This document shows positions 46,343-56,413 of a stretch of DNA of 64,000 bases, one piece after another. The stretch lies in NCBI RefSeq assembly GCF_030684185.1, contig NZ_JAUXOY010000017.1, positions 1-64,000 on the forward strand, in the 5' to 3' direction. The translations under genes and the position numbers were made by a program. The notes beneath the pieces were generated by a model that had not been told where the DNA came from, did not search any database, and saw only the letters and a list, made by a program, of their open reading frames with translations. Origin of the DNA: Methylotenera sp. (GTDB lineage: Bacteria; Pseudomonadota; Gammaproteobacteria; Burkholderiales; Methylophilaceae). Position 1 is the first letter of the stretch; each line of letters begins with the position of its first letter.

Positions 46343-46355
46343 TTACATGCAACTT

Positions 46356-46383
46356 ACTTCGTATAATGTATAGGAATACAAAT
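46356..46383 (+). other. dif-like site 1: good XerC arm, degenerate XerD arm
   Basis: ACTTCGTATAA (XerC arm) is followed by TGTATA (centre, 46367-46372) and GGAATACAAAT (degenerate XerD arm). The E. coli dif site has the same centre and spacing. The left half is chromosomal; the right arm belongs to the first satellite. The same arm pattern is found in the attachment site of the Vibrio TLC satellite, which lacks a good XerD arm. Confidence 0.8.
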
Positions 46384-46462
46384 TCAATTTAACTGCTTTT
46401 AGTGCCTATTTTTAAAAATACAGGGTTAAATTTTCGATTGGTCATCAGCCGTTGAAAGATTT

Positions 46463-46786
46463 TCAGGCTCCCTTCGTAAAAGCGGAGTTTTCAAAATCGT
46501 TAATGTTCCGACTTTTTATACGCCTTTCGTATCGGTTATAACCCAGCATCGGACCGCGTTTACCCATGACGATTTGAAACGGGTAATTGATACGCCAGAG
46601 CTTGCCAAACTTAGTGCCTTTCAATTTCCCATCCAGCAGCATCTGACGGACACGCCGCGTTGAGGTGTGAAACAGCTTGGAAGCTAAGTCCACATTGACT
46701 GCAACCAGCTTACCATCAAGCATAAATTCACCGTCCCTTGTCGGCTTTGGTGTTTCATAGTTTGAGGCGGAATAGTTTTTTAGCAT
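46463..46786 (-). CDS. satellite 1 helix-turn-helix (excisionase-like) protein
   Basis: The 107-residue protein has a MerR/excisionase-type winged-helix segment at about 30-75: AVNVDLASKLFHTSTRRVRQ, then MLLDGKLKGTKFGKLWRIN. The homologue in satellite 2 is 88 residues and shares STRR-x-R-x-L-x-D-G-x-L-x-G-x-K and G-x-R-G-P. Its ATG overlaps the stop of the 104-residue gene (ATGCTAA). As the last gene of the operon it may regulate the element or assist Xer recombination; neither is shown. Confidence 0.7.
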   Translation of the reverse strand: MLKNYSASNYETPKPTRDGEFMLDGKLVAVNVDLASKLFHTSTRRVRQMLLDGKLKGTKFGKLWRINYPFQIVMGKRGPMLGYNRYERRIKSRNINDFENSAFTKGA

Positions 46787-47094
46787 AAGAAACCCCTGAG
46801 AGCTAATACTGGCAACGGATACAAAGGGGTTGCCAGTAAATATGTTTTAACCCGTGGGTGAAGAAGTGTGCATGTTATAAGACACGCACACTGCCTAAAA
46901 CACCAGGTTAAACCCAAAACCTTAAAACCGTCGGCAGGGCGCGCAATGACCTTCAGCAAGCTACCAACCTTAACCGCACGCGATAAACTGCGCCTCAATG
47001 CGAAATGGCGCAAGTCTACATGGGGGAACCGAGTTCCCCCATACCTCATAACACCATTTAAGGCGTTTTGAAGCGTTTTTAGGGGGTTAGTCAT
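46780..47094 (-). CDS. satellite 1 protein of 104 residues, unrecognised
   Basis: I do not recognise this protein. It fills exactly the space between two neighbours, overlapping both by 7-8 bases, and the satellite 2 counterpart (111 residues) does nearly the same. The two share only the central segment LKVIARPADGF / PKVISRPASGF with some silent codon differences, which supports coding. The same DNA also holds strong hairpins (46807-46838 and 47021-47041), so it may double as a replication or packaging sequence. Confidence 0.45.
   Translation of the reverse strand: MTNPLKTLQNALNGVMRYGGTRFPHVDLRHFALRRSLSRAVKVGSLLKVIARPADGFKVLGLTWCFRQCACLITCTLLHPRVKTYLLATPLYPLPVLALRGFLC
46807..46838. repeat. 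hairpin in satellite 1
   Basis: TACTGGCAAC (46807-46816) pairs perfectly with GTTGCCAGTA (46829-46838) around a 12-base loop. It occupies the position where satellite 2 has its 14-bp-arm palindrome (48543-48572), with a different sequence. Confidence 0.8.
47021..47041. repeat. conserved 9-bp hairpin, satellite 1
   Basis: TGGGGGAAC (47021-47029) pairs perfectly with GTTCCCCCA (47033-47041) around loop CGA. TCTACA precedes and TACC follows. Satellite 2 has the same structure with a one-pair-shorter stem (48747-48765), so pairing is kept while sequence changes. Confidence 0.85.
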
Positions 47095-47518
47095 GTTTAC
47101 CCCCTAACACCAAGCGTAAAAGCGGTTTAAAGTCGATTACGTGCGCCGCTTGCCGTTTTGTATTTCGGCGTTCATAATCCGCTTGCCAGTAACGCGCCAT
47201 CGTAAAGTAATGAGAAATGTAAGTGAGTTCATGTTGTCGGAAAGGTCTACCCACGGGCGACCAAAGGGTGTCACCTTTGATTACCCAACCTTTCCAAGCC
47301 GACGACAACAATGCACCATTGGCAAGGCAGCGCAGCAGCTTAAACGCAGAATAGGGGATGCGGGTCGCACCGCATTCCCAATGCGCTATCGTTCTACTGG
47401 TCACCTGAAGCAACTTGGCAGCATCTTCAACACTCAATCGATTCATCAATCTAACTTCCTTAAATTTTTCTCTATCAATGGGCTTGTATGGCTTGCGTTT
47501 GTACTTTTTGCGCTTCAC
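47087..47518 (-). CDS. VC1465/XafT-type Xer recombination activation factor (DUF3653-like), satellite 1
   Basis: The start is the GTG at 47518, overlapping the upstream stop (GTGA), giving 143 residues. An N-terminal helix-turn-helix (LSVEDAAKLLQVTSRTIAHW) is followed by IPYSAFKLLRCLANG and the domain AWKGWVIKGDTLWSPVGRPF with YFTMARYWQADYE. This matches, from memory, the family of XafT, the TLC-phage protein that activates XerCD recombination without FtsK. The satellite 2 copy is about 90% identical over the first 120 residues; the C-terminal tails differ. A role in integrating or excising the element is inferred. Confidence 0.75.
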   Translation of the reverse strand: MKRKKYKRKPYKPIDREKFKEVRLMNRLSVEDAAKLLQVTSRTIAHWECGATRIPYSAFKLLRCLANGALLSSAWKGWVIKGDTLWSPVGRPFRQHELTYISHYFTMARYWQADYERRNTKRQAAHVIDFKPLLRLVLGGKHD

Positions 47519-47736
47519 CAACGAAGTTGACTAGGCACAATTTTGGCGGGCGGGTAAATCCACCAATGCTTAGTCCTGACGTGTTGACGGGCACCAATAA
47601 CGCGACCTTGATTGCAATATTTGCGTAGTAGATTGTATGAAAGACCGTTGCTATCAGCAAAGCTGCGCAGGCTAACTGGCTCACATTTGGAAGATTGGAA
47701 GGCAGCGTGATTAAGCCTAGATTCAGCGATAATCAT
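47515..47736 (-). CDS. satellite 1 small helix-turn-helix protein
   Basis: Placed at the ATG at 47736 (73 residues); a TTG two codons upstream overlaps the previous stop. The core CEPVSLRSFADSNGLSYNLL, then RKYCNQGRVIGARQHVRTKHWWIYPP, resembles an excisionase-type winged helix with the terminal W-W-I-Y. The last codons (PSQLRW) overlap the activator start. The satellite 2 homologue is about 65% identical. A regulatory or Xis-like role is inferred. Confidence 0.7.
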   Translation of the reverse strand: MIIAESRLNHAAFQSSKCEPVSLRSFADSNGLSYNLLRKYCNQGRVIGARQHVRTKHWWIYPPAKIVPSQLRW

Positions 47737-47738
47737 AA

Positions 47739-48005
47739 TCAAGCCGCCTTGACCAGATTTACGTCAGCTATGCGCTTGACGTAAATCTGGTCAATCCAGC
47801 TTTGCATGCGCATAAGCTTTTCTTCGGGGGACGGTTTCAGATGCTCCCAGAACACATCACAGGTGCGTTTTAGAAGCTTGGGGTTTTTGTGAGGAAATCC
47901 AGATTCATGAGCGTAAAGCCCTTCATCAATTAGTTTAGCGAGTAACTCTAATTGAAGTCTAGAAAGCTGAATATTGTAATTTTGTTGCGGTGTAGCGTTT
48001 GCCAT
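47739..48005 (-). CDS. satellite 1 first-gene protein, unrecognised
   Basis: The 88-residue protein starts with an excellent AAGGAG ribosome site 7 bases upstream. It shares MANATPQ, QLELL, ESG, LLKRT-x-D and EHL-x-PS with its satellite 2 homologue and is otherwise diverged. It is predicted to be mostly helical and has no recognised motif. It leads the operon and sits 72 bases from the dif-like site, so its promoter must lie at or across the attachment junction. Confidence 0.65.
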   Translation of the reverse strand: MANATPQQNYNIQLSRLQLELLAKLIDEGLYAHESGFPHKNPKLLKRTCDVFWEHLKPSPEEKLMRMQSWIDQIYVKRIADVNLVKAA

Positions 48006-48034
48006 TTTGGCTCCTTTTGGAAGAGACCAAAAGC

Positions 48035-48093
48035 AGGGTTGAAAATGAATAACTGTTCCGCAAAATAATATACTGTACTTCGTATAATGTATA
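48035..48093. repeat. att-proximal repeat shared by both satellites (copy 1)
   Basis: About 60 bases ending in the left half of the dif-like site are almost identical to 49755-49813 (one G/A difference seen). High conservation next to the attachment core, in contrast to more diverged genes, suggests a required recombination or promoter sequence. Confidence 0.85.
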
Positions 48094-48104
48094 GCGATTC
48101 AAGT
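48077..48104 (+). other. dif-like site 2: good XerC arm, degenerate XerD arm
   Basis: ACTTCGTATAA, centre TGTATA (48088-48093) and a degenerate right arm GCGATTCAAGT. The left half comes from satellite 1 and the right half from satellite 2. The right arm differs from that of site 1 at several positions, so the satellites are independent insertions rather than one recent duplication. Confidence 0.8.
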
Positions 48105-48219
48105 TTAAATTTCCGCTTTTGGTGCATGGTTTAAAAAATACTGCGATTAAATTTTCGTTCGGTAATCAGCCGTTGAAAGATTTTCAGTCCTTTCGTTTTT
48201 TTTCTTTTGGAGTTCACTA

Positions 48220-48486
48220 TCAAGTGTTCCGTTTATTCTTTGGCACATAATCCCTAAACAATCGACCTTCATTCTGCCTTTGAAGCATGTGTGGCCCACG
48301 TCGGCCAGTGGTTAATCGGTAGGGGTAGAGAATCTGCCAAGCCTTGCCCCTTTTATTGCCAGCCAAACGACCGTCGCTTAATAATTTGCGGATGCGTCGA
48401 GTAGAAACCGAGAAATAAATAGAGGCTTTTTCAACCGTCACAAAGCTAAATTGAAACAGATTATTTGCGGAATAGTTTTCTAGCAT
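48220..48486 (-). CDS. satellite 2 helix-turn-helix (excisionase-like) protein
   Basis: The 88-residue counterpart of the 46463 gene, with the same winged-helix segment (VEKASIYFSVSTRRIRKLLS, then DGRLAGNKRGKAWQILYPY). It is only about 45% similar to its twin and shorter at the C-terminus. Its ATG lies two bases after the stop of the 111-residue gene. Confidence 0.7.
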   Translation of the reverse strand: MLENYSANNLFQFSFVTVEKASIYFSVSTRRIRKLLSDGRLAGNKRGKAWQILYPYRLTTGRRGPHMLQRQNEGRLFRDYVPKNKRNT

Positions 48487-48488
48487 AG

Positions 48489-48824
48489 TTAAAAGCCCTC
48501 AAAGTCAATATTGGCAGGGATTACAGCAGGTTTTAAGAGCTGGTACAGGTTCTCCCGAGGGAGAACTTGTACGGGTGTTACAGTAAACCCGTCGCCCCAA
48601 TTCTGCCCGCCGTCTAAAGCCGTCGAGCAACCCCTCAAACCCTTAAACCCAAAACCGCTAGCAGGGCGCGAAATTACCTTTGGCAGAATACGCCAGGTCA
48701 ACTCACGCGAAATAATGCGCAGAAGGCCGTTATAGCGCTGTCTACATGGGGAACTGCGTTCCCCATACCCCAGCATCAAATTCGCGCCTTCACCCTGCGG
48801 GAAGGCAACAACAGCAAAGTTCAT
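48489..48824 (-). CDS. satellite 2 protein of 111 residues, unrecognised
   Basis: Counterpart of the 104-residue protein in satellite 1, starting in an ATGA overlap with the Xer activator stop. It shares the PKVISRPASGF core. Coding is supported by conserved boundaries, not by a recognised domain. The DNA also holds a 30-bp near-perfect palindrome (48543-48572) and the conserved hairpin at 48747-48765, so a structural role of the DNA itself is possible. Confidence 0.45.
   Translation of the reverse strand: MNFAVVAFPQGEGANLMLGYGERSSPCRQRYNGLLRIISRELTWRILPKVISRPASGFGFKGLRGCSTALDGGQNWGDGFTVTPVQVLPRENLYQLLKPAVIPANIDFEGF
48543..48572. repeat. 30-bp near-perfect palindrome in satellite 2
   Basis: GTACAGGTTCTCCC (48543-48556) and GGGAGAACTTGTAC (48559-48572) flank GA; one mismatch in 14 bp. 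The inner 8 bp are perfect. It may be a replication-origin hairpin, packaging signal or operator. Confidence 0.85.
48747..48765. repeat. conserved 8-bp hairpin, satellite 2
   Basis: TGGGGAAC (48747-48754) pairs perfectly with GTTCCCCA (48758-48765) around loop TGC. The flanks TCTACA and TACC are the same as in satellite 1. Confidence 0.85.
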
Positions 48825-49237
48825 ACAGCACCCCCAATAATCAAGCGAAGCGGAGTTTTTTTCGGGTCTTGTCTTGCGGTGTTTCGTCGTTCATAATCAG
48901 CTTGCCAGTAACGCGCCATCGTAAAGTAGTTAGAAATGTAGGTGAGTTCATGTTGTCGGAACGGTCTGCCCACGGGTGACCAAAGGGTGTCGCCTTTGAT
49001 TACCCAACCTTTCCAAGCCTGAGGCAACAAGGCACCATTGGCTAGGCAGCGCAAAAGCTTAAACGCGGAATAGGGGATGCGGGTCACTCCGCTTTCCCAG
49101 TGCGCTATCGTTCTGCTTGTCACCTGTAACAGCTTGGCGACTTCATCAACACTTAATCGGTTCATCATTCTCACTTCTCTGAATTGCTCTCTATCAATGG
49201 GTTTGTATGGCTTGCGCTTGTATTTTTTGCGCTTCAC
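48821..49237 (-). CDS. VC1465/XafT-type Xer recombination activation factor (DUF3653-like), satellite 2
   Basis: 138 residues from a GTG overlapping the upstream stop. It has the same helix-turn-helix (LSVDEVAKLLQVTSRTIAHW) and the AWKGWVIKGDTLWSPVGRPF domain as its twin, with about 12 differences in the first 120 residues. Strong conservation compared with the flanking genes suggests purifying selection on this function. Confidence 0.75.
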   Translation of the reverse strand: MKRKKYKRKPYKPIDREQFREVRMMNRLSVDEVAKLLQVTSRTIAHWESGVTRIPYSAFKLLRCLANGALLPQAWKGWVIKGDTLWSPVGRPFRQHELTYISNYFTMARYWQADYERRNTARQDPKKTPLRLIIGGAV

Positions 49238-49437
49238 CAGCGAAGTTGACTAGGTACAATTTTGGCGGGCGGGTAAATCCACCATTGTTTAGTCATAACG
49301 TGTTTACGAGCGCCAACGATACGACCTTGCAGGCAGAACTTGCGGAGCTGGTCGAGCGATAAGCCAGTGGTAACAGCAAAAGTGCGTAAGCTAACAGGTT
49401 CACATTTGGGAAGTTTGGGCGCATGGTTTGTCATCAT
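49234..49437 (-). CDS. satellite 2 small helix-turn-helix protein
   Basis: 67 residues with the core CEPVSLRTFAVTTGLSLDQL, then RKFCLQGRIVGARKHVMTKQWWIYPP, homologous to the 47515 protein. The start overlaps the previous stop (ATGA) and the end overlaps the Xer activator start. Confidence 0.7.
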   Translation of the reverse strand: MMTNHAPKLPKCEPVSLRTFAVTTGLSLDQLRKFCLQGRIVGARKHVMTKQWWIYPPAKIVPSQLRW

Positions 49438-49724
49438 GCAGCCCCAGATAATTCAGCATGTGCGCATACGCCCGCTGACGCGAATCGACTGCGCCCCCGC
49501 TGAATTTTTTTGACCCAGTTCTCAAAACGTTTTTGTTTTTCGTCGGCAGAGGGTTGGAGATGTTCATAAACCGCATCAAAGGTGCGTTTTAATAACTGGG
49601 GATGCGGATGTGCATAGCCGGATTCAAGAGCAAAAATTTCTTGCTCAAGCATTTTTTCAAGAAGCTCCAATTGTGAGCGAGTGAATGAAACATTAAATCT
49701 TTTTTGCGGTGTAGCGTTTGCCAT
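49434..49724 (-). CDS. satellite 2 first-gene protein, unrecognised
   Basis: 96 residues with an AGGAG ribosome site. It shares MANATPQ, QLELL, ESG, LLKRT and EHLQPSADEK with its satellite 1 homologue; the C-terminal 25 residues are unrelated. Its function is unknown. Confidence 0.65.
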   Translation of the reverse strand: MANATPQKRFNVSFTRSQLELLEKMLEQEIFALESGYAHPHPQLLKRTFDAVYEHLQPSADEKQKRFENWVKKIQRGRSRFASAGVCAHAELSGAA

Positions 49725-49754
49725 TTTGTACTCCTAGAGGCATACGCCAAAAGC

Positions 49755-49813
49755 AGGGTTAAAAATGAATAACTGTTCCGCAAAATAATATACTGTACTT
49801 CGTATAATGTATA
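49755..49813. repeat. att-proximal repeat shared by both satellites (copy 2)
   Basis: Second copy of the roughly 60-base segment also found at 48035-48093, ending at the centre of the dif-like site. Confidence 0.85.
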
Positions 49814-49824
49814 TTATGTAAAAT
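49797..49824 (+). other. dif-like site 3: complete XerC and XerD arms
   Basis: ACTTCGTATAA, TGTATA (49808-49813), TTATGTAAAAT. The right arm differs from the E. coli XerD arm TTATGTTAAAT at one base and the centre is identical. It is the only complete dif-like site in the window, formed by the left half from satellite 2 and the right half of the 6.6-kb element. It should be functional for XerCD. Confidence 0.85.
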
Positions 49825-49863
49825 AATACACCTTCAACAAAATCACATAAAAGGGATTATTTT

Positions 49864-50256
49864 ATGTGCTATCACACCGACTTATTCGGCGATGTTATCG
49901 TGTTAAAAAGTGACGTTCTATTATGGCTTGATGAGGTTGCGCATTTGCGCAACCGCACTAAATCCACGCTAGAACAATACTTTAAAAACTTTGATGTAAT
50001 AAATAAAATAAAGTTATCAAAACTTAATGGTTTATTCTATTCTGTTATATCAAAATATGAATCATCCGAAAAATATAACGATTGCGAATTACAAGTGCTT
50101 GAAACTGTTTATAAAAAAGTTTTAGACGAAAAAAAACCAGCTTGTCCTAGCTGGTTCCATGTGTGTAATAATTTTGAATGTGTGGTATTTAAACAACAAA
50201 TAAAACGCGATAAAGCCCGCGCTAAATATTTAAAACGTACTATTTTAAAGTCTTAG
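49864..50256 (+). CDS. unrecognised 130-residue protein on the strand opposite to the rest of the phage element
   Basis: The protein starts at an ATG with AAGGGA eight bases upstream. It contains LLWLDEVAHLRNRTKSTLEQ, then YFKNFDVINKIKLSKLNG, two cysteines and a basic C-terminus (RDKARAKYLKRT). A helix-turn-helix could lie at about 28-55 but is not certain. Its isolated strand and position next to the attachment site resemble repressor or recombination-control genes in small phages. It ends convergently with the 65-residue membrane protein gene. Confidence 0.6.
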   Translation: MCYHTDLFGDVIVLKSDVLLWLDEVAHLRNRTKSTLEQYFKNFDVINKIKLSKLNGLFYSVISKYESSEKYNDCELQVLETVYKKVLDEKKPACPSWFHVCNNFECVVFKQQIKRDKARAKYLKRTILKS

Positions 50257-50437
50257 TTTTTTTTGCATTAGTTCTATATTCTAATAGCTTATAAAACGCC
50301 AGCATTGATATAAGGTAACACCATATAAATGATTGTTTAGTATCACACTCATAGAGGTATATTGCTGATAAAAACAATGTAGAAAATATAGCTATCGTTG
50401 GTAACACCACACTAATTATAATTTTATTTAGTTCCAT
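50240..50437 (-). CDS. small two-helix membrane protein
   Basis: The 65-residue protein has two hydrophobic segments, IIISVVLPTIAIFSTLFLSA and FIWCYLISMLAFYKLL, and a basic tail. No family is recognised. It is the last minus-strand gene of the phage-like element and overlaps the convergent 130-residue gene by 17 bases. It could be a second lysis or membrane structural protein. Confidence 0.6.
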   Translation of the reverse strand: MELNKIIISVVLPTIAIFSTLFLSAIYLYECDTKQSFIWCYLISMLAFYKLLEYRTNAKKTKTLK

Positions 50438-50468
50438 TTTTATATTTTAACCCTTGTTTTTAAAAATA

Positions 50469-51377
50469 CTATCCCTTAACCCATCGCCTTTGTTCTCTAT
50501 GTGTTTCCCTGTATTTTCTCTGCCTAAGTTTATTGCCTTCACGCCTTGTTAATCTCTGACCGTATGCCGATGATGTTAGTTTATATCCAAAAATAGTTTT
50601 AGTGTCCATTTTATTCATTATCGCCATGAATGTATTTTCTGCTAATGTCCAGTATCTGAGAAACTCTTGAAAATCTTTAATATATTTCTTTTTCGCCGCC
50701 GCCAAGAGTTTGCCTTTTTCTCTATAGGCAACTTCCGATATTTTTAAAGAGAACTTATCTATCATCTGAGTTTTAACTTCTCTAATTAGTTGTGTTGGCG
50801 GCGTTTCTAATATGCTTCCTACTTGTAAATTAAGTCTTGTATTTAATTCTGCCACTAAAAAACTATCTATATCGCTCTTTATGTTGTCAGGCGGGAATAA
50901 TGGGCTAAATATTATTGTTTCTTTTCCCATGGCTTTTGATATTTTCTCGTTTACAATGTCTGCCATCCATTCACCTAATTCCTCTGCTAGGGTTTCACTG
51001 TAAAAATTATCAATGTCGCAAGTTATGCCATATTTTAATTCTAGTTTTTCTGAAAAAGTTTTAGCCGCCGCCGCGCCCGCCGCCGTTAATATCGCCTCTT
51101 TATCTAAACTTTCTACTACGTTACCCAATATCTTAGAAAGCCACTTTCTAACCGCCTCTTTCATATTTAAAATTATTTCAGATCCCTCTACAGCCCCTTT
51201 TACATAAACAAGTGCCTTTAATCCTGCCTTGCCCGCGCCTCCAAATATAGGCGCGATTACATCAAGAGTATCATTCACCGCCGCGTCGTGGTCTTCTTTA
51301 GATGAATACGGATACCATCTTTGCTCTTCGGTTAGTTCTTCTTTCCTTGTATATAATTTTTTAAACGGGTTTATCAT
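50469..51377 (-). CDS. 302-residue phage protein with hydrophobic segment and basic tail, unrecognised
   Basis: The protein has a Gly/Ala-rich hydrophobic stretch at about 40-65 (LDVIAPIFGGAGKAGLKALV), another at 93-107 (AILTAAGAAAAKTF), amphipathic helices and a strongly basic C-terminus (RLTRREGNKLRQRKYRETHR). It starts in an ATGA overlap with the 155-residue gene. The basic tail could bind nucleic acid. It may be a DNA-pilot, membrane-spanning or packaging protein of the virion; no homologue is recognised. Confidence 0.6.
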   Translation of the reverse strand: MINPFKKLYTRKEELTEEQRWYPYSSKEDHDAAVNDTLDVIAPIFGGAGKAGLKALVYVKGAVEGSEIILNMKEAVRKWLSKILGNVVESLDKEAILTAAGAAAAKTFSEKLELKYGITCDIDNFYSETLAEELGEWMADIVNEKISKAMGKETIIFSPLFPPDNIKSDIDSFLVAELNTRLNLQVGSILETPPTQLIREVKTQMIDKFSLKISEVAYREKGKLLAAAKKKYIKDFQEFLRYWTLAENTFMAIMNKMDTKTIFGYKLTSSAYGQRLTRREGNKLRQRKYRETHREQRRWVKG

Positions 51378-51841
51378 AATGGTTTAGCTACCAAAATTAA
51401 ATCCCATGATGCTAATACTACCGTGCCAGTTCCACCCCCTTTTAATAATAATACCACCGAAGAGTTAGAGGCTGATTTGCTTATATATAAATTTGTTGAG
51501 TCTGCCGATACACAAATATTAGCTGTTGTTGTTGGTCTTGCTAAATCCCCTACAGAATAGCCTAATGCCGCCACTTTACATTCAGCGTAGATCTCTAATG
51601 ACAATGGTCGCCCACCCATTCCATGCGCCATTGATGTTTGCAGGGCTGTTGATGTTAAAGGCATTTTTAATATAACCGCCGCTCCTGCCAAACCCACTAA
51701 TTGATTCCAATTGTTAACGCCATTGCCTATTTTTAATAGCTTTCGCGTTTCGTCATATGCCAATTCTCCATCCTGCAAAATTGGATTGACGCTTGAAAGA
51801 TTAACTCCACTATCGCGCCTTAATCTTATTATGTTTGCCAT
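51374..51841 (-). CDS. tail-fibre/spike-like protein with a phage N-terminal attachment domain
   Basis: The 155-residue protein starts IIRLRRDSGVNLSSVNPILQ, then DGELAYDETRKLLKIGNGVN. This R-R-D-x(n)-N-P-I-L-Q-D-G-E-x-x-Y-D pattern is common at the N-terminus of phage tail-fibre or spike subunits (Mtd-like). The C-terminal 90 residues are beta-rich and unrecognised. The start overlaps the stop of the upstream paralogue (TAATG). Duplicated host-binding subunits are inferred. Confidence 0.7.
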   Translation of the reverse strand: MANIIRLRRDSGVNLSSVNPILQDGELAYDETRKLLKIGNGVNNWNQLVGLAGAAVILKMPLTSTALQTSMAHGMGGRPLSLEIYAECKVAALGYSVGDLARPTTTANICVSADSTNLYISKSASNSSVVLLLKGGGTGTVVLASWDLILVAKPL

Positions 51842-52203
51842 TAACCCGCCGCCCCGCCGCCGTCAATTACAATTAGCGTTAAATCAGGCGCGTTTGTTAA
51901 ATTTAAATAATTGCCATCAAACAATTCAGGTTTGCCTGTTAAATTTGCATAAGCACCATCAAACAATTCAGGTTTGCCTGTTAAATTTGCATAAGCACCA
52001 TCAAAAGCTGTTAATGCGGGTGCATTTAATAAATCGTTATAATCCGTTTTTAGCCACACTAATTCATTCCATGTGGTTGACCCATCCCCGACCTTCTGCC
52101 TCTTGCTCGTTTTATCGTAACCGATTTCTCCATCCTGTAAAATCGGGTTTTGCGCCGACCAGTTAGTATCACTATCTCTTCGCATTCTAATTCTTTGACC
52201 CAT
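51841..52203 (-). CDS. tail-fibre/spike-like protein with 14-residue repeats
   Basis: The ATG at 52203 is preferred because GAGG lies nine bases upstream; an ATG at 52209 is too close. The N-terminal domain (MRRDSDTNWSAQNPILQDGE, then IGYDKTSKRQKVGDGSTTWN) is the same as in the following gene. Then come three copies of a 14-residue repeat FDGAYANLTGKPEL, two identical and one diverged, matching the F-D-x-x-Y-x-x-L-T-x-K-P repeats of known tail fibres, and a Gly-rich end. Probably host recognition. Confidence 0.75.
   Translation of the reverse strand: MGQRIRMRRDSDTNWSAQNPILQDGEIGYDKTSKRQKVGDGSTTWNELVWLKTDYNDLLNAPALTAFDGAYANLTGKPELFDGAYANLTGKPELFDGNYLNLTNAPDLTLIVIDGGGAAG
51894..52019. repeat. 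42-bp repeats coding for the fibre motif
   Basis: Two nearly identical 42-base units and one diverged unit lie in the fibre-like gene (14 codons each). The two identical copies differ very little at DNA level, so copy number may change by slippage or recombination and alter the fibre length. Confidence 0.8.
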
Positions 52204-52251
52204 TTTCATTTTCCTCTAGTTAATTATAAAATATTGCTATTTACTTGATTT

Positions 52252-52623
52252 TTAATTTATTGCATTGCCGCCATCAATAAAATAATCTTCATTATCTTGC
52301 CACTGCCCTAAATTTCTATCTGTTAAAGTTTCAATCTCTAATGCCAAGTAATCTTTTGGAGTGTTTGCGTTTTTGACTGTTAGCGCATCAATGTGAACCT
52401 GTTTCGTTAATCTGCTTTTACTTGCGCGTATAAGGTTGCTCTCAATCCAGTATTTTGCATTTACTTCATTTTTAAACGAAAACTCATTGCCGTTACTACC
52501 CACTAAAATATAATTTATGCTTTCTAACTGCCAAAATCCATTTTTCTCAATTGGCAAAAAAACTTCATTCTCAAAATGTAATTTTAGGCATGTGAACGGT
52601 AAAACTTTTATTTTTAAAGCCAT
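52252..52623 (-). CDS. 124-residue phage protein, unrecognised
   Basis: The ATG at 52623 (MALKIKVLPFTCLKLHFENE) follows a GGGG-containing site; a start six codons upstream is also open. The protein is beta-rich in prediction with no motif I know. Its place between the lysis genes and the fibre-like genes suggests a structural protein. Confidence 0.55.
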   Translation of the reverse strand: MALKIKVLPFTCLKLHFENEVFLPIEKNGFWQLESINYILVGSNGNEFSFKNEVNAKYWIESNLIRASKSRLTKQVHIDALTVKNANTPKDYLALEIETLTDRNLGQWQDNEDYFIDGGNAIN

Positions 52624-52641
52624 TTTTTTCCCCGTATTCAA

Positions 52642-52794
52642 AACTATTAAAAAATCACTTTAAATTTTGAAAAATTATGTTTTTTTTCATTTTTTTAAAT
52701 GAAGCCAGTTGTCGAGGGATATTAAAATTGTATCGTTACGCGTAACGAAGTTTTAAACAAGTTCCTAGGGACGATTTTTCGCTTGCTTGCTTAT
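52642..52794 (-). other. gene-free region between holin and structural genes with a perfect 16-bp palindrome
   Basis: TCGTTACG (52733-52740) and CGTAACGA (52741-52748) form a perfect 16-bp palindrome; a second near-palindrome GTTCCTAGGGAC lies about 15 bases further on. Spacing and symmetry resemble a repressor operator, or an origin element. A promoter for the fibre-like genes would be expected in this interval. Confidence 0.55.
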
Positions 52795-52995
52795 TTAATC
52801 ATTATTATCATTCCGCGCTATATCAGTCACGCCTAAAATAGTGCCTATCGCCCCTGCAATTAGTGTGATTTGTTCAGGGTTTGAGAAAATACCTAAAGCA
52901 CCGCCTAATAAAGCAATTCCGCGCCATGTTGAATGTTGTTTTGATTGCCTAATCGCCCAAGGACATACGGACGCGCAAAATGTTGGTATTTTCAT
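52795..52995 (-). CDS. holin-like small membrane protein
   Basis: 66 residues, with the hydrophobic segment WRGIALLGGALGIFSNPEQI, then TLIAGAIGTILGVTDIARND. This W-R-G-x-x-L-L-x-G-x-L-G-I-x-x-x-P-E-Q arrangement is typical of small phage holins. It lies 41 bases downstream of the M15 endolysin gene, so the two form a lysis cassette that would let virions leave by lysis. Confidence 0.7.
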   Translation of the reverse strand: MKIPTFCASVCPWAIRQSKQHSTWRGIALLGGALGIFSNPEQITLIAGAIGTILGVTDIARNDNND

Positions 52996-53036
52996 ATTTT
53001 ATTTTTCACTTTTTATTGTAATTTTTTATTAAAATT

Positions 53037-53405
53037 CTAAACTTCAAAATGTCCTGTTTCCTTTAATTTGCCAGTCCATCGCCCCGCCCAAAGCAAGCCC
53101 ACACTTTCGCCAATTTTTCCAGCCTCTAAGAATGCGTCTTTATTATTCCAGTCGCACTTTCCATTTGCCAAAACGCAAAAATCGAAAGCCAGCCCAAAAT
53201 TATGCTTACTTTTACCGCCTTTTAAATTTGTTAAAATTTTGCCCGCTTTTGTTCTTCCACTTTGCCAAAGTTCGTCTTGTTCTTCACTTGTTCGCAACGT
53301 GCATACTATCAATATATCTATGCCTTTCTGCTTGCATAGCTCGACAAACCTCAAAGCCTTCATTTTAATCTCTGGCTTTAAATCGTTAATATCTCTTGAT
53401 GACAT
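53037..53405 (-). CDS. M15 family peptidoglycan peptidase (endolysin)
   Basis: The 122-residue protein is a CwlK/VanY-type M15 peptidase. Zinc ligands are visible: His68 and Asp75 in GKSKHNFGLAFDF and His119 in ETGHFEV at the C-terminus. TLRTSEEQDELWQSGRT is the usual substrate-binding stretch. No signal peptide, so it would need a holin (the next gene). Expected to cut stem-peptide cross-links; exact bond unknown. Confidence 0.85.
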   Translation of the reverse strand: MSSRDINDLKPEIKMKALRFVELCKQKGIDILIVCTLRTSEEQDELWQSGRTKAGKILTNLKGGKSKHNFGLAFDFCVLANGKCDWNNKDAFLEAGKIGESVGLLWAGRWTGKLKETGHFEV

Positions 53406-53433
53406 AAACTACCTATTTATTCCTAAATAAAAA

Positions 53434-53493
53434 AAGTGGCGAGTCCCTTTGTTTTAATCGCTTTCACTCGAAAAACGCCAATCCCCGCCACTT
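53434..53493 (-). terminator. 60-base structured segment after the 188-residue gene
   Basis: AAGTGGCG (53434-53441) pairs with CGCCACTT (53486-53493); an inner CGAGT / ACTCG pair extends the structure. On the minus strand it is followed by a T run, so it may be a terminator or a packaging signal between the 188-residue gene and the endolysin gene. Confidence 0.6.
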
Positions 53494-53507
53494 AATACCG
53501 CACCTAC

Positions 53508-54074
53508 TTAAACGATTGCGTTAAATCGCGCAATTTCATTTGTATAGTACGTTTCAATTGCTAAAACGGCGTTCTTTTTAGTAACTAAGCTTGCGTACAA
53601 TGCCAATAATGCCGCATTTGGGCTTGTGTGATAGCCTTGCGCCTCTGCCGCTTGCACTTTAGCAAGTGCATTTGTTTTATTGTCTAATAAGCCATCTTTA
53701 AGTTTTTGAAACTTAGTTTTTTGTTTTAGCGCATCTGCAATAGGGTCAGTAGGTGGCACAAAAGCTTTAGATAGCTTCACCGCTTCATCTATGTTAATGC
53801 TTATTGTCTGAACATCATTAAACGCGCCATTAACCCATTTGATAATGTCATCAAGTGCGCTAAATGTCTTAACTTCACCGTCATCCGTAGAAGGCGTGAA
53901 TGTTTTATATGGTGACGCAACATCGCCAGTTTGAAATGTTACATTTGCTTGAAACTTTAAATTTTTAATATCTGTTACTTTGGCATCAATTGCAATTCCA
54001 CCACTAAATAACCCACTTGATAACCCAATTGCGCTTTTCTGATTAGCGCGGTTTGCTGACAATACCATAGGCAT
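53508..54074 (-). CDS. candidate virion protein of 188 residues, unrecognised
   Basis: AAGGA lies six bases before the ATG, the best ribosome site in the element. The N-terminal half is beta-rich (GGIAIDAKVTDIKNLKFQAN, then VTFQTGDVASPYKTF) and the C-terminal half helical (AEAQGYHTSPNAALLALYAS). Size, strong translation signal and position after the origin suggest an abundant structural protein, possibly the major capsid protein, but no fold can be assigned. Confidence 0.6.
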   Translation of the reverse strand: MPMVLSANRANQKSAIGLSSGLFSGGIAIDAKVTDIKNLKFQANVTFQTGDVASPYKTFTPSTDDGEVKTFSALDDIIKWVNGAFNDVQTISINIDEAVKLSKAFVPPTDPIADALKQKTKFQKLKDGLLDNKTNALAKVQAAEAQGYHTSPNAALLALYASLVTKKNAVLAIETYYTNEIARFNAIV

Positions 54075-54164
54075 ATAAATCCTTTTTTAAATTAAAATTA
54101 TTTTACATCTGCCTATTTTTTAAGCAGTTGTAAAGTTAATCTATCCTAACAAATAAAAATGATT

Positions 54165-54220
54165 TTGTGTAAGTTACAGTTATTTACACAAGTCCGAGGG
54201 CGCAAGCGGCTTTCGCCGCT
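54165..54220 (-). other. candidate rolling-circle origin
   Basis: Read on the minus strand, hairpin AGCGGC-GAAA-GCCGCT is followed by TGCGCCCTCGGACTTGTG and a second hairpin with arms TTGTGTAA / TTACACAA (54165-54191). The middle segment recalls, from memory, the P2 phage origin core GCGCCTCGGAGTCC nicked by gpA. It lies in the only gene-free stretch between the gpA-type gene and the 188-residue gene. Nick position is not determined. Confidence 0.5.
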
Positions 54221-54243
54221 CGCTTAAAAACAAAGTCAAAACC

Positions 54244-54441
54244 TTAAATACAAAACAATAAATATTGATATTCTGCTAATTTTTTACGAAAATTGTTAAT
54301 TCCCATTACAACTATCACATAGTCAATATCTTTGTTTTGATATAACCTGTTATCCCCATGTTCTACTTTTCTATACCCCGTCATACCAATTGCAATAAGT
54401 TTTGCCAACAATAAATCTTCGGCGCTTATATAAACTTCCAT
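54244..54441 (-). CDS. 65-residue protein after the replication gene, unrecognised
   Basis: The ATG at 54441 (MEVYISAEDLLLAKLIAIGM) follows AGGAG by four bases; longer starts at 54453 and 54465 overlap the end of the replication gene. The protein has KDIDYVIVVMGINNFRKKL and no recognised domain. It could be a replication accessory or single-strand-binding protein by position only. Confidence 0.5.
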   Translation of the reverse strand: MEVYISAEDLLLAKLIAIGMTGYRKVEHGDNRLYQNKDIDYVIVVMGINNFRKKLAEYQYLLFCI

Positions 54442-54449
54442 TTTTCTCC

Positions 54450-55979
54450 TCATGCCTGCACCCATTCCGCTCGATTAGTTGCCACTACTTCAAACCCAAA
54501 TCGCTCCCCCACGCCTAGCACTTTAAACGATAGCGTATCACCATACCGACCATGCACATTTAAAACGTCATAATCAACCATAAACAAACTTTTACGCGGC
54601 GGCGTTTCAAGCCCGCCCATACTTTCAATAAATTGCGCAAAGTTTGCCTTTATGTCGCCGTTCTTTTGGCACGCTTGCCATGCTTTTACAAATTCAGGTC
54701 TTTTGCCCTCCAGCTTGCCCTCATCCACTCGACGCAACTCTCTCCACACTGAAACATAGTGCCCGCCAATCTGCTGAAACTGCCTAATGCGCCAACACGC
54801 CGCCCACGCTTCAACACGCTCGTACAAGGTCTCACTCGAATGCATCTCACTTTCATCCGACTTCTCTCCATCGCCTAACCCTCCGATATTTTTTAATACA
54901 TACTTAAGAACATAACCAGCCGCGCTACCTTTAAGCGGGTTAATACTCACAAATTTAACTCTATTCTGTTTAGCTCCTGCTTCATCACCACTATCCGCCA
55001 AAAAATGCAACCTAAAAGCCCCGCGTATTTTTTCTTTCAACTTATCGCACTTGCGATAAAATAAAATTAAATGCCAGTGTGGTGTTCCATCATGATGCGG
55101 CTCTGCAATTCTCAAACCATAAAATCTAACGCCATTTTTTGCCAGTAAAGCCCTAACCCGCGCCCAGCATTCAACTAAATACTTTTGCGCATCGTCTGGC
55201 TTAGTTCCATCATATTTTTGATTAGCTTTTCCATTTGCAAGTACCGCGTGCATTCTTGAGGGAGTTGTCACCGTTACAAATTCAGAGCTATGCCCATACT
55301 TTGTTGCTAATTCCTCAAACCCTCGCATGCGGGTAACAAGTTCCGCTCGTCTATTCTCATGGTTAGACGTGCCAGTCGCCGCTATTGCGCCTAAACTCAT
55401 TACTTCACCATTTGCCGTGTTTACCATATTGATATTTTCTAGAGTTTCAATATTGCGCCTACGTTGTGCCTTTCGCCTTTCTAACGCATCGTCTGAACAG
55501 TAAACTTCCGCTCTTTTTGAAACTAAACCCGCGTTCAATGCCGCACCCTCTGCTCTTTTATTATGCGCAACCCGCAACCCGCGCAACCACCAAGATGCAT
55601 CACTTAACCGCGCCAAAATCTGCTTTCTATCGTGTTCAATTGGATAGCGCACGTTTAACTCAAAACATAAAGCCTCTAGAGTTTCATATAGGTTAAATGC
55701 TTTAGACACACCCCCCCTAGTGGTTTGCTCGCTCATAAGAACCCTAACCCGCGCTACCATATCAACCGATAATAAGATTAAATCGTCATCTGACGCACCA
55801 ATATCAATAGACCCCTTAGTGGCATCACTTAAATCCAGTAACCATAAGTTTGCCTCTTTTAGGCTTTTTTCAGCTTTTATAGCGTGTTGCTTGCGTGCGG
55901 TATTTCCCCACTTTCTAGGTAATTTCAAAATGATATTATCAACAAATTGCACTTGTTCACGTTCACGGTTGTATTTCAT
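54450..55979 (-). CDS. phage replication initiator, P2 gpA-type HUH endonuclease
   Basis: The 509-residue protein has the HUH metal motif in EPHHDGTPHWHLILFYRK (His301, His303), two candidate catalytic tyrosines in AAGYVLKYVLKN (Tyr356, Tyr360) and the GPA-family tail CWRIRQFQQIGGHYVSVWRE. P2 gpA itself is longer (about 760 residues). Such proteins nick the double-strand origin and start rolling-circle replication. It starts in an ATGA overlap with the upstream 113-residue gene. Confidence 0.9.
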   Translation of the reverse strand: MKYNREREQVQFVDNIILKLPRKWGNTARKQHAIKAEKSLKEANLWLLDLSDATKGSIDIGASDDDLILLSVDMVARVRVLMSEQTTRGGVSKAFNLYETLEALCFELNVRYPIEHDRKQILARLSDASWWLRGLRVAHNKRAEGAALNAGLVSKRAEVYCSDDALERRKAQRRRNIETLENINMVNTANGEVMSLGAIAATGTSNHENRRAELVTRMRGFEELATKYGHSSEFVTVTTPSRMHAVLANGKANQKYDGTKPDDAQKYLVECWARVRALLAKNGVRFYGLRIAEPHHDGTPHWHLILFYRKCDKLKEKIRGAFRLHFLADSGDEAGAKQNRVKFVSINPLKGSAAGYVLKYVLKNIGGLGDGEKSDESEMHSSETLYERVEAWAACWRIRQFQQIGGHYVSVWRELRRVDEGKLEGKRPEFVKAWQACQKNGDIKANFAQFIESMGGLETPPRKSLFMVDYDVLNVHGRYGDTLSFKVLGVGERFGFEVVATNRAEWVQA

Positions 55980-56317
55980 TTCGCGCTCGCTTTATTGCTA
56001 TACGCGTAATTCGCAACTCTCTTGTTTTTCTCTAAAGATAAAGTTGTATCTAAAATGTATATATAAGAATTGATAGTGTTAAGCGCAAGTAAAAATGACC
56101 TATGTTCTATCTCGTTACCCTTCAATATTGGAATTATCGGTAATAATTGCGTTAAGTTATGGCGCATCAATTCCACAGCTTCAGCTAAATATGCCGCGCC
56201 TCTAATATCTAATGTAGGGTGATTGCTGTTATTCATGGGTGAAAGATTGTTACCCATGTTTAAAGCTGGTATTTTTTCAGGTGATAAAACTTTGTAAACT
56301 GCACTATCTCGCAACAT
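55976..56317 (-). CDS. 113-residue protein before the replication gene, unrecognised
   Basis: First gene of the minus-strand run, 80 bases from dif-like site 4. The protein contains HPTLDIRGAAYLAEAVELMR, then LPIIPILKGNEIEHRSFLLA, is predicted mainly helical and ends with a basic tail. Coupled to the replication gene by an ATGA overlap. A regulatory role in replication is possible from position. Confidence 0.6.
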   Translation of the reverse strand: MLRDSAVYKVLSPEKIPALNMGNNLSPMNNSNHPTLDIRGAAYLAEAVELMRHNLTQLLPIIPILKGNEIEHRSFLLALNTINSYIYILDTTLSLEKNKRVANYAYSNKASAK

Positions 56318-56385
56318 AAAAGCCTTTCTTATGTCGCTTTACAAGCCCGCATGATTAGCGCACTATTTAATGCTTATTACAAGAT

Positions 56386-56413
56386 TTTGCTGTGTGTGTA
56401 TATTATGTAAAAT
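56386..56413 (+). other. dif-like site 4: degenerate XerC arm, good XerD arm
   Basis: TTTGCTGTGTG (poor XerC arm), centre TGTATA (56397-56402), TTATGTAAAAT (good XerD arm). Arm polarity is opposite to that of sites 1 and 2, so the 6.6-kb element carries an attachment site lacking the XerC arm. Confidence 0.75.

What the first reader, a model, noticed from the sequence alone, without database searches (positions are those of the whole stretch)
49814..56402. Candidate undescribed small lysis-type phage integrated through XerCD
The 6.6-kb element pairs a P2 gpA-type HUH initiator (Rep 54450-55979) with an M15 endolysin, holin-like protein and Mtd-like fibre proteins, but lacks inovirus Zot/pI and a microvirus capsid. 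The capsid is not identifiable by sequence. The size is close to that of Cellulophaga ssDNA phages. Lysogenic integration of such a phage at dif would be novel as far as I know.
Basis: partly seen in the sequence, partly recalled or inferred. Interest (0 to 1): 0.9.

Follow-up and report, generated by a model that had tools for sequence, protein, structure and literature searches.

The report
Small dif-integrated phage-like element, capsid unknown
A compact 6.6-kb phage-like element sits at the bacterium's chromosome-dimer-resolution site; it shares its replication and integration genes with a tailless double-jelly-roll phage but carries a different, mostly unrecognisable set of late genes, so it may be a small phage with an unknown shell or a satellite that borrows one.

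Summary
The element is real: 6,589 bp between two copies of a 17-bp repeat (49808-49824, 56397-56413), the left copy inside a complete dif (49797-49824) found in 43 of 52 genus genomes. It is about 90% coding. Rep is a P2-gpA/RstA-type HUH protein with intact motifs; an M15 endolysin, a weak holin candidate and two Mtd_N proteins are present; no Zot, double-jelly-roll (DJR) capsid or P-loop ATPase was found. New here: the cassette orf130 | attP | orf113-Rep has its closest kin in L227, a circular (by terminal repeat) 10.26-kb tailless DJR phage (Rep 52-53%, orf113 36%), and in fragment L148 (orf113 40%, orf130 45-46%). So the element joins a DJR-phage replication/integration cassette to a different late module. 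dif integration of such phages is not novel (NO16, PhiCjT23), and kinship to Cellulophaga ssDNA phages has no sequence support. Late proteins orf188, orf302 and orf129 gave no convincing relative in the collections searched, which differed per protein. Structure prediction never ran (queue full, then switched off), so the capsid question stays open. I favour an autonomous small temperate phage with an unrecognised capsid (candidate orf188); main rival: a TLC/RS1-like satellite of a DJR phage.

The parts
49797..49824 (+). complete chromosomal dif (XerC arm ACTTCGTATAA, centre TGTATA, XerD arm TTATGTAAAAT) = left attachment site
   Evidence: empty-site order in L139/L140
56397..56413 (+). right attachment half-site: centre TGTATA + XerD arm, no XerC arm (TLC-type attP, inferred)
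   Evidence: same layout in L227
49864..50256 (+). orf130, divergent gene next to attP, putative regulator (inferred from position only)
   Evidence: 45-46% to L148, 58% over 33 aa to the G008 relic; similar 128-aa ORF in L227, compared by eye; weak PHROG hits, E 0.001, unknown function
55976..56317 (-). orf113, first gene of the replication operon
   Evidence: 36-40% to L227/L147 and L148
54450..55979 (-). Rep, P2 gpA/RstA-type HUH endonuclease, HWH and two-tyrosine motifs intact
54244..54465 (-). orf73, unknown
   Evidence: no relative
53508..54074 (-). orf188, orphan; best host-codon score in the element; followed by a terminator-like hairpin; candidate major structural protein (inferred)
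   Evidence: no convincing relative; weak sub-threshold Phage_tube_2 hit
53405..53510 (-). predicted hairpin with T-run between orf188 and M15 (terminator-like; not listed by the terminator scan, whose loop limit is 8)
53037..53405 (-). M15 (VanY-like) endolysin
52795..52995 (-). holin-like 66-aa protein (weak)
52252..52623 (-). orf129 (123 aa from ATG), orphan
51841..52209 (-). Mtd1: Mtd_N domain plus short repeated motif, putative receptor-binding protein
51374..51841 (-). Mtd2: Mtd_N domain, putative receptor-binding protein
50469..51377 (-). orf302, orphan with basic C-terminus
50240..50437 (-). orf65, small membrane protein
   Evidence: hydropathy peak 2.33

Best explanation
An intact small temperate phage-like element that lives as a circular molecule and as a prophage at dif. 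Host XerC/XerD join its attP (centre plus XerD arm only) to dif, leaving a complete dif on one side so that the host site stays usable. orf130, divergent from the orf113-Rep operon across attP, probably controls the switch; Rep starts rolling-circle replication. After induction orf188 and the Mtd/orf302 group supply structural and receptor-binding proteins, and M15 plus the holin candidate lyse the cell. The control/integration/replication cassette is shared with tailless DJR phages such as L227; the DJR capsid and ATPase module is absent and a different late module stands in its place. I think it most likely encodes its own unrecognised capsid (best candidate orf188). Shown: boundaries, gene content, cassette kinship, no recognisable DJR, Zot or ATPase gene. 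Inferred: Xer integration, regulation, replication mode, lysis, packaging.
For: Attachment sites. Empty-site gene order in L139 and L140 of 18 dif regions. Cassette kinship: (window Rep with L227 and L148, SH-aLRT 100). L227 is a DJR phage by homology. The 12 ORFs each score best in their own frame and cover 90% of the element; orf188 has the highest codon score. Terminator-like hairpin after orf188. Own lysis and Mtd_N genes. A relic of a related element at dif in another species, G008.
Against: No capsid fold was shown: structure prediction never ran (25 busy replies, then switched off). orf188 has only a sub-threshold tail-tube match (E 0.0026, 17.8 bits against a cut-off of 27) and chance-level PDB matches (best E 0.063). 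No packaging ATPase. No second copy of the late module was found, so selection on it cannot be tested. The right half-site alone is not beyond chance at 2 mismatches. The terminator scan found 8 sites against 5.0 (sd 2.2) in shuffles and did not list the orf188 hairpin. No evidence of excision or virions.
Confidence: 0.5

Rival explanations
1. A helper-dependent satellite of a DJR tailless phage, working like TLCphi or RS1 do with filamentous phages: it keeps the shared replication/attP cassette, brings its own lysis and spike genes and is packaged in a helper capsid.
For: The cassette is closest to a DJR phage; no capsid or ATPase recognisable; attP layout and lack of recognised morphogenesis genes recall TLCphi (PMC4246890, passages); a DJR prophage exists in the same host family (G106).
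Against: It carries its own lysis and receptor-binding genes and an orphan with host-like codons, unusual for such satellites (recalled). With the L227 capsid as query, no match in the host's own genome and a match in only 1 of 187 family genomes.
Confidence: 0.27
2. A remnant: a DJR prophage that lost its capsid module and gained cargo, no longer able to move.
For: The DJR capsid and ATPase are missing; a mostly deleted related element exists at dif in G008.
Against: The attachment sites, the Rep motifs and the ORFs are intact and tightly packed; apart from the weak holin match to L002 the late genes show no similarity to the DJR contigs compared.
Confidence: 0.13
3. A Xer-integrated plasmid-like element with accessory genes picked up from tailed phages, never packaged.
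For: Rolling-circle-type Rep; M15 and holin-like genes resemble a pair in contigs such as L047, which has tail-spike and head-protein matches.
Against: Lysis genes plus two Mtd_N proteins make little sense without a particle; no close match to orf188 (best E 0.3) or orf302 in the plasmid collection.
Confidence: 0.1

Closest known systems
Tailless DJR phage L227 (IMGVR_UViG_3300004201_000019, 10,257 bp after removing a 59-bp terminal repeat) and fragment L148 (4.9 kb, no capsid gene on it)
   Same: orf130-like gene, orf113 and Rep (51-53%) in the same order; attP between orf130 and orf113, with centre plus XerD arm in L227
   Different: L227 has a packaging ATPase, DJR capsid, tail-collar-type protein and lysozyme; none of these found in the element. 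L148's site has both arms with a long centre
Vibrio NO16 (proposed Asemoviridae)
   Same: non-tailed temperate phage with dif-like sites (PMC9966536, abstract and passages)
   Different: 10.6 kb with a DJR capsid (annotated); none found here
PhiCjT23-like phages (Flavobacterium)
   Same: 6.0-8.4 kb prophages, Rep near one end, dif motifs at both ends, temperate icosahedral ssDNA phage (PMC9719478, passages)
   Different: capsid is a 239-aa DJR protein with an internal membrane; the element has no DJR-like protein and one clear membrane protein by hydropathy; no sequence kinship found
TLCphi/RS1 satellites (Vibrio)
   Same: Xer integration; TLCphi has a replication module but no morphogenesis genes (PMC4246890, passages)
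   Different: they are packaged as filamentous phages (recalled); the element has lysis and Mtd_N genes
CTXphi RstA / P2 gpA
   Same: same Rep family (32% over 96% to RstA; 34-42% to Reps of 30-37 kb phage records, top 20 of 324 listed)
   Different: no Zot or filamentous module; no tailed-phage head genes

Membership tests
gpA-type HUH Rep (PF05840) | profile match, HUH and two tyrosines | tested here: met
   2.7e-71; H301-W-H303, Y356, Y360 invariant; motif roles recalled
Vinavirales / DJR tailless phages | DJR major capsid protein | tested here: not met
   capsid profile against 12 element proteins: best E 0.13 (Mtd2); hhalign of 7 of the 12: best probability 0.9 percent
Vinavirales / DJR tailless phages | packaging ATPase | tested here: not met
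   no P-loop motif in the 12 proteins; no profile hit
Filamentous phages (Inoviridae) | Zot/pI morphogenesis ATPase | tested here: not met
Microviridae | VP1-type capsid | tested here: not met
   no such Pfam or PHROG hit in the 12 proteins
Finnlakeviridae / Obscuriviridae / PhiCjT23 group | homologous capsid or structural genes | tested here: inconclusive
   tblastn of orf188, orf302 and orf129 against phages gave nothing useful; presence of these phages in the collection not checked; no fold comparison possible
Xer-integrated elements (TLC class) | attP with centre and XerD arm, full dif on the other side | tested here: met
   XerD-first class from PMC4246890 passages, the missing XerC arm of TLCphi is recalled; XerCD action itself not testable here
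DJR-phage satellite | mobilised by a helper | not testable with these tools
   no DJR capsid match in G000, which does not exclude an infecting helper

The most novel reading that the evidence does not exclude
A temperate phage lineage with an undescribed capsid: orf188 (188 aa) founds a new capsid type, and the phage arose by swapping the DJR capsid/ATPase module of a dif-integrating tailless phage for an unrelated late module while keeping the replication and integration cassette.
Probability: 0.33. Interest if true: 0.82.

Novelty: new variant of a known kind. Interest (0 to 1): 0.52.

Why it matters
Small tailless prophages are often recognised by their capsid genes (marker use in PMC11630473, passages); an element with their backbone but no recognisable capsid could be overlooked by such screens. 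It is either a new capsid type or, as far as I know, the first satellite tied to DJR phages, and one induction experiment could tell these apart.

Tried and rejected
Relatives of the late module. orf188: viral contigs, 52 genus genomes (itself, and G036 at E 4.5e-4, 36% over 79 aa of a 223-aa ORF that I judged unrelated), phages (23, two records at E 3), plasmids (26, one at E 0.3), genome contigs (49), a class sample of 369 genomes (102, only itself). orf302: phages (24, none), an order sample of 399 genomes (25: itself and 7 weak hits, E 0.003-0.008, five of them to the same stretch of about 100 aa in ORFs of 502-536 aa; not followed up), viral contigs (30), plasmids (117, none). orf129: phages (118, none). 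A joined query of five proteins (orf188, orf302, orf129, orf113, orf73) in 187 family genomes (46) found only the element and the same G036 hit. Coverage is uneven: orf129 was not searched in viral contigs, plasmids or genome contigs, orf302 not in genome contigs. Single-protein scans of viral contigs and genome contigs need exact short peptides and miss distant kin. NCBIfam and PADLOC named nothing in the element above a cut-off.

orf188 as a DJR capsid: rejected on sequence; it is also shorter than the smallest DJR capsid named in PMC9719478 (239 aa). The Phage_tube_2 hit (below cut-off) and the PDB decorator-protein hit (E 0.063) are taken as chance. Strand skew as a sign of ssDNA: rejected, since the DJR phage L227 has similar skew (0.20 against 0.22). 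Similarity of the sequence right of attR to the orf130 leader: not significant (106 of 2000 shuffles). A scan of genome contigs with Rep alignment A4 found nothing; viral-contig scans with A4 (80) and orf113 alignment A2 (116) found only L148 and L227. In the Rep tree duplicates, Reps under 350 aa and all but one Rep per locus were left out, L148 was labelled DJR by kinship only, and the G106 DJR prophage was carried under 'other' (L006), so the group counts there are not used. The G106 DJR prophage has a XerD half-site at one end (103) but no full dif was found in the 10 kb next to its other end (109), so its integration at dif is not shown.

Literature: searches for a DJR-phage satellite (91, none; 126, two papers), Xer satellites (108, 10 of 15 listed) and Methylotenera prophages with dif (125, 8 of 115 listed) showed no description of this element; of most of these only listings were seen. 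This does not show that none is in print.
Full report
What is there. The window lies on contig C5 of a 2.72-Mb genome. Between 49808 and 56413 lies a 6,589-bp element bounded by a 17-bp direct repeat. The left copy is part of a complete dif, 49797-49824. A dif-like sequence (up to 3 mismatches) occurs in 43 of 52 genus genomes, so this is taken as the chromosome's own site. The right copy has only the centre and XerD arm; taken alone such a half-site is not rare (20 of 100 shuffles hold two or more at 2 mismatches). Among the 18 dif regions I took out of the 43 genomes, L139 has the SmpA-like gene, dif and the DoxX gene side by side with no element, and L140 has SmpA, dif and MsrQ/MsrP: the empty arrangement. 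The host is probably a Methylophilaceae relative; that name is my inference and comes from no call.

Genes. One gene (orf130) reads rightward from the left end; the other eleven read leftward as a compact series with several overlaps. The 12 ORFs cover 90% of the element, and each scores best in its own frame under the codon use of 36 host genes. Rep matches Phage_GPA at 2.7e-71 and CTX RstA at 32% over 96%; its HUH and tyrosine motifs are invariant in alignments with seven and with two relatives. M15 has good profile matches. In 17 of 60 viral loci with a related M15 a small protein like holin66 lies within about 600 bases downstream; one of these, L047, looks like a tailed phage by its tail-spike and head-protein matches. 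Two proteins carry an Mtd_N domain; some weaker tail-fibre matches reach into the rest. orf188, orf302, orf129, orf130, orf113, orf73 and orf65 have no Pfam family above its cut-off.

Kinship. L227 is circular by a 59-bp terminal repeat and encodes a packaging-ATPase-like protein, a major capsid protein and a lysozyme-like endolysin. The capsid is called DJR by homology: it groups with the L002 capsid, whose matches include Vibrio phage proteins annotated as double jelly roll. It is 64% identical to one in a prophage of G106, in the host's family. L227 and L148 also carry orf113 (36% and 40%); L148 carries orf130 (46%) and L227 a similar 128-aa ORF across the contig junction (by eye). In the element and in L227 attP lies between orf130 and orf113, with the centre and XerD arm conserved and no XerC arm; in L148 both arms are present around a long centre. 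In a tree of 85 Reps the window, L227 and L148 form one group with SH-aLRT 100 (long branches elsewhere). A relic of dif plus the first 33 codons of an orf130 relative lies at dif in G008.

What is missing. A profile of the DJR capsids found nothing among the 12 proteins (best E 0.13, Mtd2), and hhalign of 7 of them found nothing. There is no P-loop and only one clear membrane protein by a simple hydropathy scan (orf65), whereas DJR phages carry several membrane proteins (PMC9502842, passages). So the element shares a cassette with DJR phages but fails their defining features and is not filed as one.

How it works. I favour an autonomous small temperate phage (0.5 for the whole statement). orf188 stands apart between a gap of about 170 bases upstream and a predicted hairpin with a T-run downstream (not listed by the terminator scan) and has the highest codon score of the element, as expected for an abundant structural protein; the element has its own lysis and receptor-binding genes. 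The main rival is a satellite of a DJR phage, parallel to TLCphi, which has a replication module but no structural genes (PMC4246890, passages). No DJR capsid match is in the host genome, but a helper could come from outside. Neither is shown; the planned structure test could not be run.

Known or new. Tailless phages at dif are known: PhiCjT23-like prophages of 6.0-8.4 kb (PMC9719478, passages), NO16 (PMC9966536, abstract and passages) and a few Vibrio tailless prophages, for which the paper leaves open whether host or phage recombinases act (PMC11630473, section 34). The element has no integrase match. New, as far as the searches show, is this cassette joined to a late module without a recognisable capsid. 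A parallel case of virus-like elements without hallmark genes is the Charybdis group (PMC12324425, abstract); no sequence comparison with it was made.

Limits. Only one copy of the late module is known, so selection on it cannot be tested. The collection scans with single proteins are insensitive, and not every protein was searched in every collection (see Tried and rejected). Whether the Cellulophaga ssDNA phages are in the phage collection was not checked.

Noticed in passing
window 46355-49797: Two tandem elements of about 1.7 kb left of dif, each starting with a XerC arm plus centre but no XerD arm (VGJ-like half-sites, class recalled), with DUF3653 and small HTH proteins and no replication protein among the 8 proteins scanned. 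Relatives of these genes lie at dif in 4 of 18 genus regions examined (L133, L134, L135, L143).
   Followed up: partly
L128 9073-9241 (G008): Relic at dif: complete dif followed by the first 33 codons of an orf130 relative, the rest gone.
   Followed up: yes
L015 and L016 (G106): A DJR prophage inside an identical stretch of at least 15.9 kb present twice about 143 kb apart: real duplication or assembly artefact.
   Followed up: partly
L148 2985-3030: An attP-like site whose XerC and XerD arms are separated by an unusually long centre, reminiscent of CTX attP1.
   Followed up: no
window 54076-54244: GC-rich predicted hairpin in the gap between the end of orf73 and the start of orf188, without a T-run; possible replication or packaging signal; energy not compared with shuffles.
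   Followed up: no
window 50469-51377 (orf302, residues 138-242): Five genomes of the order sample match the same stretch of orf302 weakly (E 0.003-0.007) in ORFs of 502-536 aa; chance or a distant shared domain.
   Followed up: no
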